The position numbers and the translations under genes are program-made. Positions 22,083 to 31,117 of a stretch of DNA of 36,318 bases are shown one piece after another. Numbering within the stretch: position 1 is the first letter of the stretch; each line of letters opens with the position of its first letter. Source of the stretch: Candidatus Acidiferrales bacterium (GTDB taxonomy: Bacteria > Acidobacteriota > Terriglobia > Acidiferrales > UBA7541). The notes under the pieces are model-generated. The model was given only the letters and a program-made list of their open reading frames with translations. It made no database searches and was not told the origin of the DNA. Where the stretch lies: positions 1-36,318 of the forward strand of contig JASHRL010000101.1 in NCBI GenBank assembly GCA_030037355.1, read 5' to 3'.

Positions 22083-22736
22083 TCAAGAAAACGTCTCGAC
22101 CGAAACTCTCTGGGCCTCCTGGCAAGCGAGTTTTTGGGAGCCGTGCGCATACCGGAGCGTGCTCCCGATGGCCGCGTGTCCCGCAAGCAACTTGACCAGA
22201 TACAAATCCATCTTGCCTATGACCGACGTTACCCGGCTGTGCTTCAGCGCGTGGATATGCCGGCACGATTCCGCGATGGGTCGCTCTCCTCTCGCCACGC
22301 GAGCCTCGGACGCCACCCTGCAGTACTTCGCAAACATCCGGTTGACCGTGTTTCGATCGAACTTACCCTTTTTCGAGAGAAAGAGAAGGTCTGAACCCGA
22401 GTCCCGCGGGCGCTCCTTCAGCCAGGACCGCAGCGCGTGGACTTCGTCCATGCACGGTCGCCCGCGCATGCGAAATAGAGGCTGCGTGGTCTTGAGTGAG
22501 CCCTTGAGGCGCTGGACGGTGATCTCCATGTTGCGCCAGTCGATCTGGGAAAGCCTGAGTGCGACGAGCTCGCTGGCTCGAAGCGCGTGCTGGAAGCAGA
22601 CGAGCAGCATCGCGTGGTCACGGACACTCCGGCGCCGAACCTCCTCGAAGACGTCCAGCAGTTCGTCTTCGGTGAGGTGCTTTAGGGAATTCGACTGGTG
22701 TACTTGGCTACTCTCAGAGCGGGTGTCTGTCACCAA
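22083..22736 (-). CDS. short tyrosine recombinase (catalytic domain only)
   Basis: A 217-residue XerD/FimB-like recombinase without the usual N-terminal core-binding domain. Arg I is in HALRASELVALRLSQID (near residue 52). The hairpin Lys is in QRLKGSLKT. Box II reads HALKHSR, with Lys in place of the usual Arg of HxxR, and LAGHAAIGSTLRYAHG holds the last His and the nucleophilic Tyr (near 198). The start is TTG 22736 or GTG 22733; a TATAAT ends only 4 bases upstream of the TTG, so the message may begin at the start codon. FimB-type inverters have a similar size. It heads a three-gene operon. Confidence 0.75.
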   Translation of the reverse strand: MVTDTRSESSQVHQSNSLKHLTEDELLDVFEEVRRRSVRDHAMLLVCFQHALRASELVALRLSQIDWRNMEITVQRLKGSLKTTQPLFRMRGRPCMDEVHALRSWLKERPRDSGSDLLFLSKKGKFDRNTVNRMFAKYCRVASEARVARGERPIAESCRHIHALKHSRVTSVIGKMDLYLVKLLAGHAAIGSTLRYAHGSQKLACQEAQRVSVETFS

Positions 22737-25132: not shown

Positions 25133-26485
25133 TCATGTCTTGTGACGCATTGAAGACGCCTCTTCGGACGGCAAGGAAAGTGGTATTCCCTCTAATGCAC
25201 GGATGTACTCCACCACGGCCTCACTCCAGCCATCGATATGAGTCCAGGCACCGTAGCCGACGCCGTTCTTGGCGCTGGCGACATTGATCACGTAGCCGCG
25301 CCCTCGGGGACCGGGCACGCGATCATGCGCCTGCTCGTCAGTGATGACGATGATTCGGTCGTATTTCTGGTCGATTTTCTCAAGTGCCCGACCGAGATAA
25401 GTTCCATTGTGCGGCTGGCTCGAATCAAGAGCGTCGCGCAATGCGAATCCACGACGCGGGGGCACTTCCACTAGGTCATTCGAGAATGTGAAGACAGTCG
25501 CTTTCTCGCAGATTTCGCGGAGTAGGACCGCGAGCCCGTACGCAGCATCAGTGCGGAGCATTTCGGAGCGACGGGATAGCAGCGCCGTCATACTGCCGGA
25601 AATGTCCACGAGCAGCACGGTTCGACCGGATAGCTTTTCCTGTTCGCCGAGTGACGAAAGCATCGCGCGTTCGAGCGCCTCTTCCCACTGCGGCGCGTAG
25701 CGTCCCGCAGCGAGGAATCTAAAGGGCAAAACACGCGCCGAATTCATCGAGGCGATGCTTGCCAAGACCACGGCCTCGTCCACCCCGGCTTCTTTCATGT
25801 TGCGCAAGTTCCGCAGCAGCGCAAGCCCGCCCAGCTTTTTCTCGCGAAGCAGACGCTCCCACGCTACTTTCTTATCTGCCCCCGAAGAAAGAGCTACTTC
25901 CCAAGTGTCTGGCGTCTTCAATTCTCCCTCGATGAGCCGCTTCCAGATCTGGGTTTGCTCACCGTCTCGTGGCTTCGCGTGGCAGAGAAATAGAACGTCG
26001 CGCAGACGCACTGGTCCGGTTCGGTCATACTTCGCGAGTTGGTACTCGTCAAATTTCCGAAAGGCTTGCGCGAGTCCTTTCTTCACTTGCGCGGAAAGAG
26101 GTGCTTTGCCGTCCTTCCAATAGATAGCGACGAATTCTGCCAACTCATCGGCGCGCTGAATCACTTGTCCAAGCGTTTGCGAGACCAGAGCGCGGTGGTC
26201 CTTCTGGCGTGCCATCTCCCGCACGAGCAAAAGCGGAGCGTGACGCAGTTTCATCTTGCCGCGTGCCTCAGTAGCCAGAGACGCAACGGCGTCCGGCTTT
26301 ACTTTGGGCACGAGTTCGCGAATCCGTCCGGCGATTTCAACGCCGTCCTCATAGAACTGATCTTCCCAAAGCAGGGTAGCCAGGACCGAGCGTCGTAGCG
26401 CGAGTTCCGGTGAAATGTCGCGCGCCGGACCTCCCTCGTGTGTTCGCGGGCCCCACGGAAGTTTCATCAGATTTAGCCGGGCCAT
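25133..26485 (-). CDS. rsr: TROVE-domain Ro60 homologue (Rsr)
   Basis: A 450-residue Ro-type RNA-binding protein. The N-terminal about 275 residues form the TROVE helical-repeat ring (ISPELALRRSVLATLLWED, then LATEARGKMKLRHAPLLLV and VLFLCHAKP). The C-terminal vWFA domain has the MIDAS motif VDISGSMTALLS (near 293-298), the Thr in PHNGTYLGRAL and IVITDEQ. Ro proteins bind Y RNAs on the outside of the ring and misfolded RNA ends in its cavity; in bacteria they work with exonucleases in RNA decay and stress survival. AAAGGAAG precedes the ATG. It is the last gene after rtcB, rtcA and four Y-like RNAs, an arrangement known from other bacteria. Confidence 0.92.
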   Translation of the reverse strand: MARLNLMKLPWGPRTHEGGPARDISPELALRRSVLATLLWEDQFYEDGVEIAGRIRELVPKVKPDAVASLATEARGKMKLRHAPLLLVREMARQKDHRALVSQTLGQVIQRADELAEFVAIYWKDGKAPLSAQVKKGLAQAFRKFDEYQLAKYDRTGPVRLRDVLFLCHAKPRDGEQTQIWKRLIEGELKTPDTWEVALSSGADKKVAWERLLREKKLGGLALLRNLRNMKEAGVDEAVVLASIASMNSARVLPFRFLAAGRYAPQWEEALERAMLSSLGEQEKLSGRTVLLVDISGSMTALLSRRSEMLRTDAAYGLAVLLREICEKATVFTFSNDLVEVPPRRGFALRDALDSSQPHNGTYLGRALEKIDQKYDRIIVITDEQAHDRVPGPRGRGYVINVASAKNGVGYGAWTHIDGWSEAVVEYIRALEGIPLSLPSEEASSMRHKT

Positions 26486-26511: not shown

Positions 26512-26655
26512 TTCGCCGGGGAACAAGCGGCTGCGCTTATGGCTTGCGCCGTTTTCTGAGCTATCCCGATCGTTCGGGAACAGGAATCGAACCTGCGCCT
26601 CTCGCCCAAAGGCGAGCGCTCTACCGAAGTAAGCGCCTCCTACGCCACCGGCGAA
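26512..26655 (-). ncRNA. Y-RNA-like element 4, tRNA body permuted at the D-loop
   Basis: About 144 bases, ending 26 bases before rsr. Outer stem TTCGCCGG / CCGGCGAA (26648-26655 with 26512-26519). Internal loop TGGCGTA opposite GCTTGTTCC. Second stem GCGCTTA / TAAGCGC. Inside, in 5'-3' order: D-arm 3' half GGTAGAGC, an anticodon-like arm CTCGC-CTTTGG-GCGAG, T-arm GCAGG-TTCGATT-CCTGT, an acceptor stem closed as a hairpin (TCCCGA-ACGA-TCGGGA), TA, then D-arm 5' half GCTCAG. The D-stem GCTC/GAGC therefore closes around the Y stem. A GGC-GCAA-GCC hairpin sits in that joint. This is a circularly permuted tRNA without a free CCA end. Known bacterial YrlA-type RNAs are tRNA mimics; the D-loop opening is my reading. 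Confidence 0.72.
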
Positions 26656-26678
26656 CTTCTTCCGGTAATCCGAATGTC

Positions 26679-26813
26679 TGCCGGGGAATCATTGGCTACG
26701 GCTCCAGCTTGCGCTGGCGGCTGCTCTTCCGCTGAGCTATCCCACTTTCGCGGGAGCAGGAGTCGAACCTGCGACCAACCGATCCGAAGTAACCGTTGCC
26801 CTCGCCACCGGCA
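26679..26813 (-). ncRNA. Y-RNA-like element 3, tRNA body permuted at the anticodon loop
   Basis: About 135 bases. Outer stem TGCCGG / CCGGCA (26808-26813 with 26679-26684). Internal loop TGGCGAG opposite AATGATTCC. Second stem GGC-A-ACGGTT / AGCCGT-A-GCC. Then, in order: anticodon-stem 3' strand CGGT, five-base variable loop TGGTC, T-arm GCAGG-TTCGACT-CCTGC (26756-26772), acceptor hairpin TCCCGC-GAAA-GTGGGA (26740-26755), linker TA, complete D-arm GCTC-AGCGGAA-GAGC (26723-26737), anticodon-stem 5' strand GCCG, and a CCAGC-GCAA-GCTGG hairpin. The order and linker lengths match a canonical tRNA cut in its anticodon loop with the acceptor end sealed by a tetraloop. That is the known design of YrlA-type Y RNAs bound by Rsr. 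Confidence 0.8.
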
Positions 26814-26820
26814 AGAACTA

Positions 26821-26927
26821 GGCCAGGGTAAATCAGGCACGGCGTTGTGGGGGATCGAACCCCTTGCTCTCCACTCGCGTGAGGAGCAGCTTCGCTAGAG
26901 AAGTATCCGTACCCTGCGCCACGGGCC
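26821..26927 (-). ncRNA. Y-RNA-like element 2 with a T-arm
   Basis: About 107 bases. Outer stem GGCC-C-G / C-T-GGCC with one mismatch (26922-26927 with 26821-26826). Internal loop TGGCGCAG opposite TGATTTACC. Second stem GGTACGG / CCGTGCC (26907-26913 with 26836-26842). Inside are a CTTC-TCTAGC-GAAG hairpin, a longer hairpin GCTCCTCAC-GCGA-GTGGAGAGC and a T-arm GGGG-TTCGATC-CCCC. No sealed acceptor stem or D-arm is seen, so it mimics only part of a tRNA. It is placed with the others on the shared stem/internal-loop pattern. Confidence 0.6.
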
Positions 26928-26934
26928 ATTTACT

Positions 26935-27006
26935 CCTGGGGGAATAATCGTTCACGGCCTTTTGTTCGATTGACAGTCGATGGAACCGTGAACTACGCCA
27001 CCCAAG
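26935..27006 (-). ncRNA. Y-RNA-like element 1, minimal form
   Basis: About 72 bases, starting 1 base after the rtcA stop codon. Outer stem CTTGGG / CCCAGG (27001-27006 with 26935-26940), internal loop TGGCGTAG opposite CGATTATTCC, second stem TTCACGG / CCGTGAA (26986-26992 with 26951-26957) and a simple apical loop with a TCGA / TCGA pairing. It lacks any tRNA-like body. It could also act as a processing or termination structure after rtcA; the conserved internal loop argues for a Ro-binding RNA. Confidence 0.6.
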
Positions 27007-27007
27007 G

Positions 27008-28033
27008 TTACGACTTCCTCTTCACTTCAATTCGAACGCACGCGTTTTCCTGCGCGGTTTCGAATTCGACAGGCAAGAAGCTTGAAATCACTTCCATGTT
27101 GGTTCTCGCGTGACGATTCAACCGGACTGCAGTAAACGCGCCGGCTCCCGCCAAAGCAAATGGCAGCAAGAGCTGGTCTGCCAGGTGTTCACCTGCCACT
27201 GCGTTAGACGCCAGGTAGCCTCGCGCCTCCTTCGCTGCCTCCGTCGCAACGCTTTCGGCTGCCGTTCCGACACGACCAAAGCCACAAAAGACCTCTGTCA
27301 CTCCAGCCGACGTTCCAATTTCGATCAAGACGATGTTTCCCGGTCCGACCGACTTCTTGGTTTCGATAATTTCGAGCTGGCCTGCTTCCCAGTTCAGCAT
27401 CTTTGCGACTGTGTTGATCTCACGCTGTGCGATTCTTCGTGGGAGATTGGCGACAATGGCGACTGCTTTCCGATGCACGATGTCTCCGCGCTCGACAAGC
27501 TGAACCGGCGACAACACGGCGCAAGGTTCGATCGTGACGGTAAATGAGCCGCCTCCCGCCGGATAAAAGCCGTACCGTTCGAGCTTGAGTGCGACTCTCG
27601 GGCCCAACTTGCCGATAGCTGGCAAGAAGCATCTCTCCAGAAAGTCGAAAGGGGGCGCTTGCAGATTGTGCGTGCCTCCTTCAATCGTGATAGAGCTCAC
27701 TCCCGATGTCGTCATCAACGCCGGCAGAATTGTCTGAAGCACCAGAGTTCCGCTGCCAGCCGTTCCGATCACAAATCGATGATTCCCTGACTTCACTATC
27801 CCTGGCTCGAATGCCAGCGCCTGGGAACCCAAATTCGCACCCTCGACCTGAGCTCCGCCGATCTCCGCCGCAGCGAGAACGGCCGTAAGGTGCTGTCGCA
27901 GCAGTCCTGGCCGCTCTCGCTTGGCGCGGATGTTCTCGATGCGGAATGCCTTTCCGGTTGCGAGCGACAGGCTCAAAGATGAGCGCAGAATCTGCCCGCC
28001 GCCCTCTCCCGACGATCCATCGATTCGAATCAT
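27008..28033 (-). CDS. rtcA: RNA 3'-terminal phosphate cyclase
   Basis: A 341-residue enzyme that uses ATP to convert an RNA 3'-phosphate to a 2',3'-cyclic phosphate through an AMP intermediate. It begins MIRIDGSSGEGGGQILRSSL, the family opening, followed by RAKRERPGLLRQHLTAV. PRRIAQREI and, near the C-terminus, EHLADQLLLPFALAG carry the site of the catalytic His (E. coli His309 equivalent). Length is normal. It begins 13 bases after rtcB and is followed at once by the Y-like RNAs, so all are probably one transcript from the sigma-54 promoter. Confidence 0.95.
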   Translation of the reverse strand: MIRIDGSSGEGGGQILRSSLSLSLATGKAFRIENIRAKRERPGLLRQHLTAVLAAAEIGGAQVEGANLGSQALAFEPGIVKSGNHRFVIGTAGSGTLVLQTILPALMTTSGVSSITIEGGTHNLQAPPFDFLERCFLPAIGKLGPRVALKLERYGFYPAGGGSFTVTIEPCAVLSPVQLVERGDIVHRKAVAIVANLPRRIAQREINTVAKMLNWEAGQLEIIETKKSVGPGNIVLIEIGTSAGVTEVFCGFGRVGTAAESVATEAAKEARGYLASNAVAGEHLADQLLLPFALAGAGAFTAVRLNRHARTNMEVISSFLPVEFETAQENACVRIEVKRKS

Positions 28034-28046
28034 GGATGCACTACGT

Positions 28047-29276
28047 TTATCCCTTCACGCAAACCACCTGATGCAGTGTGTGAACGATCTCCACCAGGTC
28101 GGCCTGAGCCGCCATCACAGCCTCTATGGGCTTGTAGGCGGCCGGCGTTTCGTCGATCACGTCCGCATCCTTGCGGCATTCGATGCCCGCCGTCATGCGA
28201 GCGTGATCGGCCAGTGAGAAGCGGCGCTTCGCTTCAGTACGCGACATCGCTCGGCCTGCTCCGTGGCTGCAACTGTGGAAGCTTTCCGGATTTCCCTTCC
28301 CGCGCACGATATAAGAACGCGCTCCCATACTGCCGGGGATAATTCCCATATCGCCTTCGCGGGCACGGACGGCTCCCTTACGCGTCACAAGCACGTTTTC
28401 GCCGTAATGCGATTCGCGCGCCACGTAATTGTGGTGGCAATTGATTGCCTTCAACTCTGCCGTGAACGGACGCACTTCTCCGCACGCACGGACAGCGCCG
28501 ACAATCTGCTCCATCATCATGTCGCGATTCAAACGCGCGAAATCCTGCGCCCAGTGGACCGCTTCGACATAATCATCGAAATGCTCGCTGCCTTCCGGGA
28601 AGTAGCCAAGATCCCGGTCAGGCAGATGAATGAACATTCGCTCCATGTCCTTTCGAGCGACCTCGATGAAGTAGCTGCCCATTCGATTGCCCACACCGCG
28701 GGAACCGCTGTGGAGCATGAACCACACCGAATCGGACTCGTCGAGGCACACTTCTATGAAGTGATTGCCGGTGCCAAGCGTACCCAAATGGTTCGCGTGG
28801 TTGCCGCGATCGAGCTTTGGATGCTTCTCAAGGATCGCATCGTAGCGCGGCTTGAGCGTCTGCCAGGTTTCCATGGTGCGTACGGGGATTTCGTGCCACG
28901 CACCGCGGTCACCCTTGCCTCCATGATTTGTGCGACCGTGCGGCACCGCTTTCTCAATGGCTGAACGAATCCCTTTCAAATTTTCAGGAAGATCGCGGGC
29001 ATTCAAGTCCGTTTGGATGGCCATCATGCCGCAGCCAATATCCACGCCAACGGCCGCGGGAATGATCGCGCCTTTTGTCGGAATAACGCTTCCCACTGTC
29101 GCGCCGACACCCCAGTGCACGTCCGGCATGGCTGCGACCCACTTGAAAATGAACGGCAACTGAGCGACGTTCAGGAGCTGCTTACGCGCTTCATCTTCGA
29201 GCGAAACGCCTTTTGTCCACGCCTTGATGGGTGCACCTTTCTCGGGAACGATCACGTTGTATGCCGTGTCTGCCAT
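28047..29276 (-). CDS. rtcB: RNA-splicing ligase RtcB
   Basis: A 409-residue GTP- and Mn-dependent ligase that joins 2',3'-cyclic-phosphate or 3'-phosphate RNA ends to 5'-OH ends. It aligns by eye along its full length with E. coli RtcB (408 residues): KAWTKGV, MPDVHWGVGATVGSVIPTKG, AAVGVDIGCGM with the metal-binding Cys, LGTLGTGNHFIEVCLDESD, LHSGSRGVGN, INCHHNYV and HSCSHGAGRAMSR with the guanylated His. The ATG at 29276 with GGGAGA ahead fits the family start. A GTG at 29333 with AGGAGG 9 bases upstream would add 19 residues and cannot be excluded. First gene under the -24/-12 promoter. Confidence 0.97.
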   Translation of the reverse strand: MADTAYNVIVPEKGAPIKAWTKGVSLEDEARKQLLNVAQLPFIFKWVAAMPDVHWGVGATVGSVIPTKGAIIPAAVGVDIGCGMMAIQTDLNARDLPENLKGIRSAIEKAVPHGRTNHGGKGDRGAWHEIPVRTMETWQTLKPRYDAILEKHPKLDRGNHANHLGTLGTGNHFIEVCLDESDSVWFMLHSGSRGVGNRMGSYFIEVARKDMERMFIHLPDRDLGYFPEGSEHFDDYVEAVHWAQDFARLNRDMMMEQIVGAVRACGEVRPFTAELKAINCHHNYVARESHYGENVLVTRKGAVRAREGDMGIIPGSMGARSYIVRGKGNPESFHSCSHGAGRAMSRTEAKRRFSLADHARMTAGIECRKDADVIDETPAAYKPIEAVMAAQADLVEIVHTLHQVVCVKG

Positions 29277-29382
29277 TTGAGTCTCCCTTCGGTGCTTGAT
29301 TCCGTCCGACTTCGAGGCGCGGGCGCCAACCACGCCCCGCGCCTCCTATGTTTCTCTCTTCATCGCTTGCAACCTGTTACTC

Positions 29383-29397
29383 GCAGGAAGCGTGCCA
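29383..29397 (-). promoter_or_regulatory. sigma-54 (-24/-12) promoter of rtcB
   Basis: On the minus strand TTGGCACGCTTCCTGC matches the RpoN consensus, with GG and GC exactly ten bases apart. The predicted start is near 29371, about 95 bases before the rtcB ATG. rtcR, a sigma-54 activator, is divergent, as in E. coli. Confidence 0.85.
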
Positions 29398-29503: not shown

Positions 29504-31117
29504 ATGCCGAATGAACATAATGTCGTAATCGGTTTGCTCGGAACCACGCTCGACTCCGGGCGGACTCACGACCGATGGCAGAGTTGGCGCCCGACGGTAG
29601 CGATTTGTCGGCAGCCAGACTTCGTAGTAAAGCGATTGGAACTTCTGCACGGGTTGCGCGACAAGGCCTTGGCACACCGTGTGGCGGAAGACATTTCAGC
29701 GGTTTCACCAGAAACCGCTGTACGACAGCACGAAATCGAATTCGGCGATCCGTGGGATTTTGAGCGTGTTTATGAAACGCTTTTTAACTTTGCCCGTGCC
29801 TACCCGTTCGAACCGGAGAAGGAGGAATACCTCGTCCACATCACTACGGGCACGCACGTAGCCCAGATATGTCTCTTCCTCCTGACAGAGTCCCGATATC
29901 TTCCGGGAAAGCTACTTCAATCCTCACCGGAACGAGACCGAAGCGCACCAGGAACAATCAAAATCATAGACCTAGATTTATCCAGATATGATCGAATTGC
30001 TTCGCGTTTTCGTCAGGAGAGCAACGATGCGATTTCCTATCTGAAAGGAGGCATCGACACCAGAAACTCGGCTTTCAACCAACTGATCGACCGAATCGAA
30101 CAGGTTGCTATAGCCACACGCGATCCCCTCCTCTTTATGGGTCCGACTGGTGCCGGCAAGTCCAGGCTGGCGCGCCGAATCTACGAACTAAAGAAAATGC
30201 GGCGCACCCTCGTCGGTGATTTCATCGAAGTCAATTGTGCGACTCTTCGGGGCGATGGGGCCATGTCCACGCTTTTCGGACATACCAAGGGGGCTTTCAC
30301 CGGCGCTCTGCGTGACCGCCCAGGTGTCCTGCGTGCGGCCAACGGAGGAATCCTTTTCCTCGATGAGATTGGCGAGCTTGGCAGAGACGAACAGGCCATG
30401 CTTTTGCGTGCGCTGGAAGAAAAGACCTTCCTCCCCCTCGGATCAGACCGCGAAGCTCACAGCGACTTTCAACTGATCGCGGGAACCAATCGCGATTTAC
30501 TCGCCGCTGTCCGGGAAGGTCGTTTTCGTGAAGACTTGCTGGCTCGAATCAACCTGTGGACATTCACACTTCCGGGCCTCCGGTCCCGCCCAGAGGACAT
30601 TGAGCCGAACCTTCAGTTCGAGCTGGATGAATTCGCCAGGCGGACAGGACACCACGTAACGTTCAACAAAGAGGCTCGTGAGAGATTTCTGGGGTTTGCC
30701 CTTACTCCATCGTCGCGATGGGCAGGAAACTTCCGTGATCTGAACGCGGCAGTAGTACGAATGGCTACTTTGGCTCAGGGCGGTAGAATTTCTATCGATA
30801 TTGTAGACGAAGAAATCGAACGTCTGAGCGCTTCTTGGGTAAGGCTCCAGTCTGACGAATCAGATGAGCTTCTCTCTCAGATCTTAAGCACGGATGCGCT
30901 CGACCAACTCGATCAGTTTGACCGTGTCCAGCTTGCGCACGTCGTTCAAGTCTGCCGCGCCTCACGTTCACTTTCAGAGGCCGGCCGTGGCCTCTTCAGT
31001 GCTTCGCGGACTCGTAAAGCGAGCACCAACGACGCAGATCGTCTGCGGAAGTACCTCAGTCGGTTCGGAGTCACATGGTCGCAGGTGATCGGCGAAGAAT
31101 CATCGCGACCTGCATAG
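29504..31117 (+). CDS. rtcR: sigma-54-dependent regulator RtcR
   Basis: A 537-residue activator of rtcBA (E. coli RtcR has 532). Residues 1-180 form the CARF-like Rossmann sensor (VVIGLLGTTLDSG, EYLVHITTGTHVAQICLFLL), thought to sense RNA ends or fragments. The AAA+ domain has Walker A GPTGAGKS (near 212), GAFTGA for sigma-54 contact (near 264), Walker B GGILFLDEIGEL (near 284) and RWAGNFRDL. A C-terminal HTH-like region holds SLSEAGRGLFSASRTRK. The ATG has no ribosome site and a TATACT only 8-13 bases upstream, so the message may be leaderless. It diverges from rtcB. Confidence 0.95.
   Translation: MPNEHNVVIGLLGTTLDSGRTHDRWQSWRPTVAICRQPDFVVKRLELLHGLRDKALAHRVAEDISAVSPETAVRQHEIEFGDPWDFERVYETLFNFARAYPFEPEKEEYLVHITTGTHVAQICLFLLTESRYLPGKLLQSSPERDRSAPGTIKIIDLDLSRYDRIASRFRQESNDAISYLKGGIDTRNSAFNQLIDRIEQVAIATRDPLLFMGPTGAGKSRLARRIYELKKMRRTLVGDFIEVNCATLRGDGAMSTLFGHTKGAFTGALRDRPGVLRAANGGILFLDEIGELGRDEQAMLLRALEEKTFLPLGSDREAHSDFQLIAGTNRDLLAAVREGRFREDLLARINLWTFTLPGLRSRPEDIEPNLQFELDEFARRTGHHVTFNKEARERFLGFALTPSSRWAGNFRDLNAAVVRMATLAQGGRISIDIVDEEIERLSASWVRLQSDESDELLSQILSTDALDQLDQFDRVQLAHVVQVCRASRSLSEAGRGLFSASRTRKASTNDADRLRKYLSRFGVTWSQVIGEESSRPA

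What the first reader, a model, noticed from the sequence alone, without database searches (positions are those of the whole stretch)
26512..27006. Four tandem Y-RNA-like elements between rtcA and rsr built on one shared core
Every element has an outer stem, then an internal loop with TGGCG(T/C/-)A(G) on the 5' side and a T-rich 3' strand ending ATTCC, TTTACC or GTTCC, then a second stem. The pairings differ in sequence but keep the shape, which indicates covariation inside one locus. Gaps between elements are only 7, 7 and 23 bases. Known bacterial operons have one or two Y RNAs; four of different complexity, all in front of a Ro protein and behind RtcA, is unusual. The shared internal loop is the natural candidate for the Rsr-binding site.
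Basis: partly seen in the sequence, partly recalled or inferred. Interest (0 to 1): 0.9.

Follow-up and report, generated by a model that had tools for sequence, protein, structure and literature searches.

The report
Array of four bacterial Y RNAs
Four small structured RNAs sit between an RNA-repair gene and the gene for the ring protein that should bind them; such sets of three to eight are normal in this bacterial group, but the last RNA appears to carry a transfer-RNA look-alike joined at an unusual place (its D-loop).

Summary
On the minus strand, between rtcA and a TROVE/Ro (rsr) gene, lie four RNA elements: E1 27006-26935, E2 26927-26821, E3 26814-26678, E4 26655-26512. All share one core: an outer stem, a bulged U, GG/CC pairs, CGNAG, a second stem, and a U-rich strand ending UUCC or UUACC. 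Alignments of the homologues of each element show strong covariation. In 399 genomes of the class, the model built on E4 finds strong matches in 35 genomes, all with rsr, and in none of the 355 without rsr. They are bacterial Y RNAs in an RtcR/sigma54-type RNA-repair operon. The claim that four is unusual fails: sampled rsr loci carry 3-8 and one phage has eight. E2 has a T arm. E3 is the classic YrlA permutation, joined at the anticodon. E4 looks like a nearly complete tRNA joined at its D-loop, its D stem split across the Y stem. Rfam's YrlA model misses all four at threshold. The D-loop permutation rests on sequence order and conservation; its D stem does not covary and is unproven. New variant of a known kind.

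The parts
26935..27006 (-). E1: minimal Y RNA (about 72 nt), core plus a small UCGA-closed apical hairpin; class I, first in the array
   Evidence: R2 78.6 bits, only hit in the whole genome; covariation in 21 homologues, 93.9% of cells paired; z -3.08
26821..26927 (-). E2: Y RNA carrying a T-arm (26863-26850) and two extra hairpins, no acceptor or D arm; class II
   Evidence: descriptor; R1 31.7 bits, E 2.7e-4; covariation in 12 homologues; weak folding z -1.34
26678..26814 (-). E3: classic YrlA-type Y RNA: T arm 26772-26756, closed acceptor hairpin 26755-26740, whole D arm 26739-26723
   Evidence: Rfam YrlA 44.7 bits, below its gathering score of 69; ARAGORN calls a tRNA on the circularised interior (W_4); covariation in 19 homologues, 97.7% paired
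26512..26655 (-). E4: Y RNA whose tRNA-like module appears opened in the D-loop: GGUAGAGC 26625-26618, anticodon-position hairpin 26616-26601, T arm 26596-26580, acceptor hairpin 26579-26564, UAGCUCAG 26563-26556; class V
   Evidence: R1 100.3 bits (a seed member); covariation of acceptor, T arm, stem B and AC-position hairpin in 12 homologues; RNAalifold recovers the split D stem on that set but not on the broader set
26640..26647 (-). 5' strand of the shared core in E4 (UGGCGUAG), candidate Rsr contact; equivalents lie in E1-E3
   Evidence: U G G. G conserved across A3, A5, A6, A7
25133..26485 (-). rsr: TROVE/Ro60-like protein, 450 aa, vWA DxSGS motif
   Evidence: Pfam TROVE 3e-16; full-length match to solved TROVE protein 9l5y, E 7.5e-32
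27008..28033 (-). rtcA, RNA 3'-terminal phosphate cyclase
   Evidence: Pfam RTC 2.6e-73
28047..29333 (-). rtcB, RNA ligase
   Evidence: Pfam RtcB 6.8e-131
29383..29397 (-). sigma54-type -24/-12 promoter TGGCACGcttcCTGC upstream of rtcB
   Evidence: only exact match in the window; no sigma70-like site or terminator inside the Y array
29504..31117 (+). rtcR, CARF/sigma54 activator, divergent
   Evidence: Pfam RtcR 5.4e-83 and Sigma54_activat 6.4e-47

Best explanation
The interval encodes four Y RNAs that are partners of the Rsr protein encoded just downstream, transcribed with rtcB-rtcA from a sigma54 promoter under RtcR and then released from the polycistronic RNA (the processing step is inferred). 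Rsr most likely grips the shared core, that is the outer stem with a bulged U, GG/CC, CGNAG and the U-rich strand. Each RNA then mounts a different module on the ring: E1 almost nothing (occupies or gates the ring), E2 a T arm, E3 a tRNA joined at the anticodon side that exposes elbow and acceptor, and E4 a tRNA joined through its D-loop that exposes acceptor and anticodon-position arm. The modules would dock tRNA-binding enzymes (PNPase, tRNA modifiers, RtcB) on Rsr during tRNA damage. Shown here: the elements, core, covariation, association with rsr, operon context and order of tRNA parts. Inferred: Rsr binding, processing, docking role, and the split D stem of E4.
For: Operon genes and promoter. 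Descriptor with strand and position controls. Covariation per class. Co-occurrence: R1 at E of 1e-6 or better in 35 genomes, all among the 44 with rsr, 0 of 355 without. A model built on Acidobacteria E1-type elements finds a Y element before rsr in Deinococcus gobiensis, from the genus where bacterial Y RNA was first shown experimentally (genus fact from PMC4726728). tRNA parts: 60 of 287 circularised interiors are called tRNA against 0 of 995 shuffled. E4 type: GAGC on the 5' side in 17 of 21 elements chosen essentially by T-arm offset, against 12 of 85 classic ones; a closed 3' D arm in 69 of 85 classic ones; strict classifier splits 8 D-loop-opened and 85 classic with no overlap.
Against: No expression or binding data. 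The D stem GAGC/GCUC of E4 is nearly invariant, so it has no covariation support; its pairing probability in E4 is only 0.32; the 12-member seed was chosen partly for having both halves; RNAalifold on the 21 less selected elements did not return it, though that alignment is poor on the 3' side. The shuffled false rate of the strict split test is 2%. E2 folds little better than shuffles. Some E4 homologues have lost D halves or the T-loop.
Confidence: 0.82

Rival explanations
1. E4 is an ordinary YrlA-type RNA whose D arm has decayed: T arm and acceptor hairpin remain, and the GGUAGAGC and UAGCUCAG pieces are leftovers that do not form a long-range D stem.
For: D stem does not covary and has low predicted probability; some homologues lack one or both halves; RNAalifold misses it on the broad alignment.
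Against: Both halves stand in tRNA order around a covarying anticodon-position hairpin, an AGGUC-like variable region, T arm and acceptor; classic elements rarely have GAGC on the 5' side (12 of 85); GAGC on the 5' side persists in 17 of 21 divergent elements.
Confidence: 0.25
2. The interval is a structured mRNA spacer, a cis-acting leader or stability element for rsr rather than trans-acting RNAs.
For: The elements lie inside an operon with no promoter or terminator of their own found.
Against: The same elements precede rsr whatever the upstream gene, with or without rtcBA, in Acidobacteria, Bradyrhizobium, Deinococcus and phages; each carries the same core, as expected for separate ligands of one protein.
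Confidence: 0.1
3. E4 (26571-26656) is a functional tRNA-Arg(UCG) gene, as ARAGORN calls it.
For: ARAGORN call; Rfam tRNA 31.7 bits, covering only positions 10-63.
Against: No acceptor-stem match to the tRNA model; many homologues have tetraloops such as GAAA, GCAA or GUAA instead of a seven-base anticodon loop; the called acceptor uses the Y outer stem; the strong same-type homologues sit in rsr arrays.
Confidence: 0.02

Closest known systems
Salmonella rsr-yrlBA-rtcBA RNA-repair operon (PMC7790460, PMC4987338)
   Same: rtcB, rtcA, rsr and Y RNAs in one RtcR/sigma54 operon; rtcR divergent
   Different: Two Y RNAs there, four here; gene order rsr-Y-rtcBA there, rtcBA-Y-rsr here
YrlA (Rfam RF02553; structure 6CU1 as cited in PMC8394870)
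   Same: E3 has the same order T arm, acceptor hairpin, D arm on a Y stem
   Different: E3 scores 44.7 and E4 22.7 against a gathering score of 69; E4 has its D halves on opposite sides of the module plus a hairpin in the anticodon position
Deinococcus Y RNA / RYPER (Rsr-Y RNA-PNPase; PMC8394870, PMC4726728)
   Same: Rsr partner RNA with a lower stem for Rsr; D. gobiensis has an E1-type and a YrlA-type element before rsr
   Different: PNPase tethering not testable here; more element classes in this locus
Circularly permuted tRNA genes (PMC3978253)
   Same: tRNA parts encoded in permuted order
   Different: Those are processed to real tRNAs (own knowledge); here the permuted module stays grafted on a Y stem and lacks an anticodon loop

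Membership tests
Bacterial Y RNA (Rsr/Ro60 partner) | Encoded next to a Ro60/TROVE orthologue | tested here: met
   Rsr starts 26 nt downstream of E4; co-occurrence 35 with rsr against 0 of 355 without
Bacterial Y RNA (Rsr/Ro60 partner) | 5' and 3' ends pair into a stem with a bulge and a conserved lower-stem motif | tested here: met
   Shared core with covarying stems A and B
Bacterial Y RNA (Rsr/Ro60 partner) | Physically bound by Rsr | not testable with these tools
   Needs pull-down or gel shift
YrlA (Rfam RF02553) | Reaches the curated gathering score (69 bits) | tested here: not met
   E3 44.7, E4 22.7 bits, E1 and E2 none; the D. gobiensis YrlA-type element also only 49.6
YrlA (Rfam RF02553) | Order T arm, acceptor hairpin, closed D arm | tested here: met
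   Met by E3 only; not met by E1, E2, E4
tRNA | Open acceptor stem and 7-nt anticodon loop | tested here: not met
   Acceptor strands closed in a hairpin; short loop in the anticodon position in E4 and most homologues
RtcR-regulated RNA-repair operon | rtcB, rtcA and a divergent rtcR with a sigma54 promoter | tested here: met
   Pfam hits and exact -24/-12 match

The most novel reading that the evidence does not exclude
One Ro/Rsr protein is served by a set of Y RNAs in which the same tRNA fold is grafted on a common Rsr-binding core at different permutation points (anticodon loop in E3, D-loop in E4), so that the ring presents different faces of a tRNA to tRNA enzymes during RNA repair.
Probability: 0.5. 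Interest if true: 0.75.

Novelty: new variant of a known kind. Interest (0 to 1): 0.58.

Why it matters
Bacterial Y RNAs are known mainly as one or two RNAs with one tRNA-like design. Here and in related genomes they come as ordered sets of distinct classes, including one that looks like a second, D-loop-based permutation of a tRNA not captured by Rfam. If it holds, it gives a direct way to ask what the tRNA mimic is for: the two permutations expose opposite parts of the same fold on the same protein. It also explains false tRNA annotations beside TROVE genes, in phages among others.

Tried and rejected
Four as an unusual number: rejected by counts in relatives and phages. E4 as a tRNA-Arg gene: rejected. 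E4's anticodon-position arm as a decoy for anticodon nucleases: considered, disfavoured because the loops are mostly tetraloops without an anticodon. ARAGORN on the circularised E4 interior gave no tRNA call, probably because its split D-loop is long; E3 was called. RNAalifold on the 21 E4-type candidates did not give the D stem. Key papers on bacterial Y RNAs (Chen 2014, Sim and Wolin 2018, Wang 2018) were not held, so what they say on the number of Y RNAs per operon and on other permutations could not be checked.

Full report
WHAT IS THERE. The window lies in a 3.75 Mb draft genome; named relatives of the locus are mostly Acidobacteriota of the class Terriglobia. On the minus strand the order is rtcB (28047-29333), rtcA (27008-28033), a 522-nt spacer, rsr (25133-26485); rtcR is divergent at 29504-31117. 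An exact sigma54-type promoter, TGGCACGcttcCTGC, lies at 29397-29383 on the rtcB strand, the only exact match in the window. The spacer has no sigma70-like promoter or terminator-like site of its own. Rsr matches the TROVE domain and, over almost its whole length, a solved TROVE protein.

THE FOUR ELEMENTS. It also gave one marginal hit at 27160 reaching into the end of rtcA, taken as false. In the core, a U bulges after stem A and is followed by GG pairing with the CC of the UUCC or UACC strand. This resembles, but is not the same as, the vertebrate Ro60 site described in PMC4726728 (a seven-pair helix, one bulged C, a three-nucleotide bulge opposite).

IS IT MORE THAN CHANCE. Shuffled 1-kb sequences scored at most 11.5, against 13-18 for the four. 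With the final scoring and a threshold of 14.5, 67 rsr loci with at least 2 kb upstream gave 174 sense hits, 1 antisense hit in the same DNA and 2 hits on both strands downstream. Homologues of each element were aligned and pairs counted. E1-type: 21 sequences, 93.9% of cells paired, 12 of 18 pairs with two-sided change, slid controls 41-55%. E3-type: 19 sequences, 97.7%, 18 of 28, slid 38-50%. E2-type: 12 sequences, 87.8%, 14 of 24, slid 35-56%. E4-type: 12 sequences, 91.2%, 21 of 35, slid 36-47%. The elements were collected with a descriptor that asks for stems A and B, so the inner helices (T arm, acceptor hairpin, anticodon-position hairpin) are the freest evidence; they also covary, apart from the weak extra hairpin of E2-type and the D stems.

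LINK TO RSR. In the same 399 genomes of the class, 44 have rsr. The E4-type model R1 has a match at E of 1e-6 or better in 35 genomes, all of them among the 44; none of the 355 genomes without rsr reaches that level (best 1.8e-6, 44 bits; weak matches there may be ordinary tRNAs). The E1 model R2 has a single hit in the own genome, at E1. R2, built only from Acidobacteria-type elements, finds Y elements directly before rsr in Deinococcus gobiensis; these read as one E1-type and one YrlA-type RNA.

HOW MANY IS USUAL. Counting R1, R2 and descriptor hits together, 20 sampled rsr loci hold 3-8 elements, median 5 (the sample was picked by hand, not at random). The conservative descriptor alone gives 4 or more in 22 of 67 loci. 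The Bradyrhizobium loci in the sample have four. Phage CcrColossus has eight R1 hits before its TROVE gene, Brevundimonas phage Gurke five, Xanthomonas phage 10KY502B three. Four is therefore ordinary in this Rsr clade. The order is also conserved in many Terriglobia: E1-type first, YrlA-type later, E4-type or a related form last.

THE tRNA PARTS. E1 has none. E2-type elements carry a T arm but no acceptor or D arm. E3 has T arm, acceptor strands closed in a hairpin, and a whole D arm: the known YrlA design (Rfam alignment; YrlA as described in PMC8394870). In several E3-type homologues the 5' side also keeps pieces resembling an anticodon loop and the 3' side of an anticodon stem, so the Y stem enters at the anticodon (my reading). 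E4 is different. From 5' to 3' it reads GGUAGAGC, a hairpin, AGGC, T arm, acceptor hairpin, UAGCUCAG (coordinates). Read around the circle from the acceptor this is the normal tRNA order, opened in the D-loop, where the Y stem is inserted. Twelve similar elements, nearly all from Terriglobia, align well, and RNAalifold recovers the D stem on them. In 21 elements chosen by T-arm position (plus one with a lost T-loop), GAGC occurs on the 5' side in 17; in 85 classic elements in 12; a closed 3' D arm occurs in 69 of those 85. A strict classifier puts 8 elements in the D-loop-opened class and 85 in the classic class with no overlap; its false rate on shuffled 5' segments is 2% (118 of 5900), which over the 118 testable elements predicts about 2.4. 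Circularising the interiors lets ARAGORN call a tRNA in 60 of 287 elements against 0 of 995 shuffles.

LIMITS OF THE D-LOOP CLAIM. The D stem does not vary, so it cannot covary. Its pairing probability is 0.32 in E4 and 0.01-0.88 in homologues. The 12-member seed was picked partly because both halves were visible. On the 21-member alignment RNAalifold did not return the stem; that alignment is visibly poor on the 3' side. ARAGORN did not call E4's circularised interior. The claim rests on sequence order and conservation of tRNA consensus pieces, and I give about 0.7 that the split D stem is real.

NOT A tRNA. ARAGORN names 26571-26656 a tRNA-Arg, but Rfam's tRNA model matches only its middle, the acceptor strands are closed on each other, and the anticodon-position hairpin ends in a small loop that is a tetraloop in many homologues. 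Three phage records carry tRNA annotations inside Y elements before TROVE genes (with 67), evidently the same error.

HOW IT LIKELY WORKS. In Salmonella the related operon is switched on by tRNA fragments ending in 2',3'-cyclic phosphate that bind RtcR (PMC7790460), and in Deinococcus Y RNA tethers Rsr to PNPase (PMC8394870). By analogy the four RNAs are co-transcribed with rtcBA and rsr when tRNAs are cut, freed by processing, and bound by Rsr through the shared core. Their modules then decide what else joins the complex. E3 and E4 hold a tRNA fold from opposite sides, so E3 leaves elbow and acceptor free while E4 leaves acceptor and the anticodon-position arm free. Expression, processing, binding and docking are inferences.

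NOVELTY. Y RNAs in rtc/rsr operons and tRNA mimicry by YrlA are known. The D-loop-opened form (E4) and the T-arm-only form (E2) are missed by Rfam's YrlA model, which in relatives L105, L112 and L114 picks up only some other elements of the arrays. I know of no description of a D-loop-opened Y RNA, but the main papers were not available to check. I file this as a new variant of a known kind.

Noticed in passing
L150:2792-2859, L151:2778-2852, L152:2149-2216: Phage tRNA annotations (Thr, Ser, Gln) directly upstream of TROVE genes lie on Y RNA hits; these tRNA genes are probably misannotated Y RNAs.
   Followed up: partly
L152:1739-2930: Caulobacter phage CcrColossus has eight Y-element hits in a row before its TROVE gene, with E1-, T-arm- and YrlA-type members.
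   Followed up: partly
L080, L096, L099, L112 and others, about -540 to -200 from rsr: A conserved small protein (about 110 aa, no Pfam family) is encoded between the YrlA-type element and the last Y element in most Acidobacteriaceae rsr loci; it is absent from the window.
   Followed up: partly
L012:5812-13213: A distant TROVE gene sits inside an array of about 30 predicted tRNAs; nearby tRNA-like elements show yet another order (D arm, anticodon arm, T arm, closed acceptor hairpin).
   Followed up: no
window:25133-26485: Rsr is up to 77% identical to proteins of other families of the class but only 55-59% to those of its own family, and four same-genus genomes lack it: probable horizontal transfer.
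   Followed up: partly
L080, L096, L103, L124 and others, 155-172 nt elements: A further Y class of about 160 nt without a T arm is common in Terriglobia arrays and missing here.
   Followed up: no
window:32512-33111: AbiEi-type antitoxin gene beyond rtcR, and a phage-type integrase at 22083-22736: signs of a mobile or defence-rich region.
   Followed up: no
L119, L121, L123, L125, L127, L128: In Alphaproteobacteria related rsr loci have rtcB downstream of rsr instead of upstream, while most Acidobacteriaceae loci have no rtcB within 6 kb upstream.
   Followed up: partly
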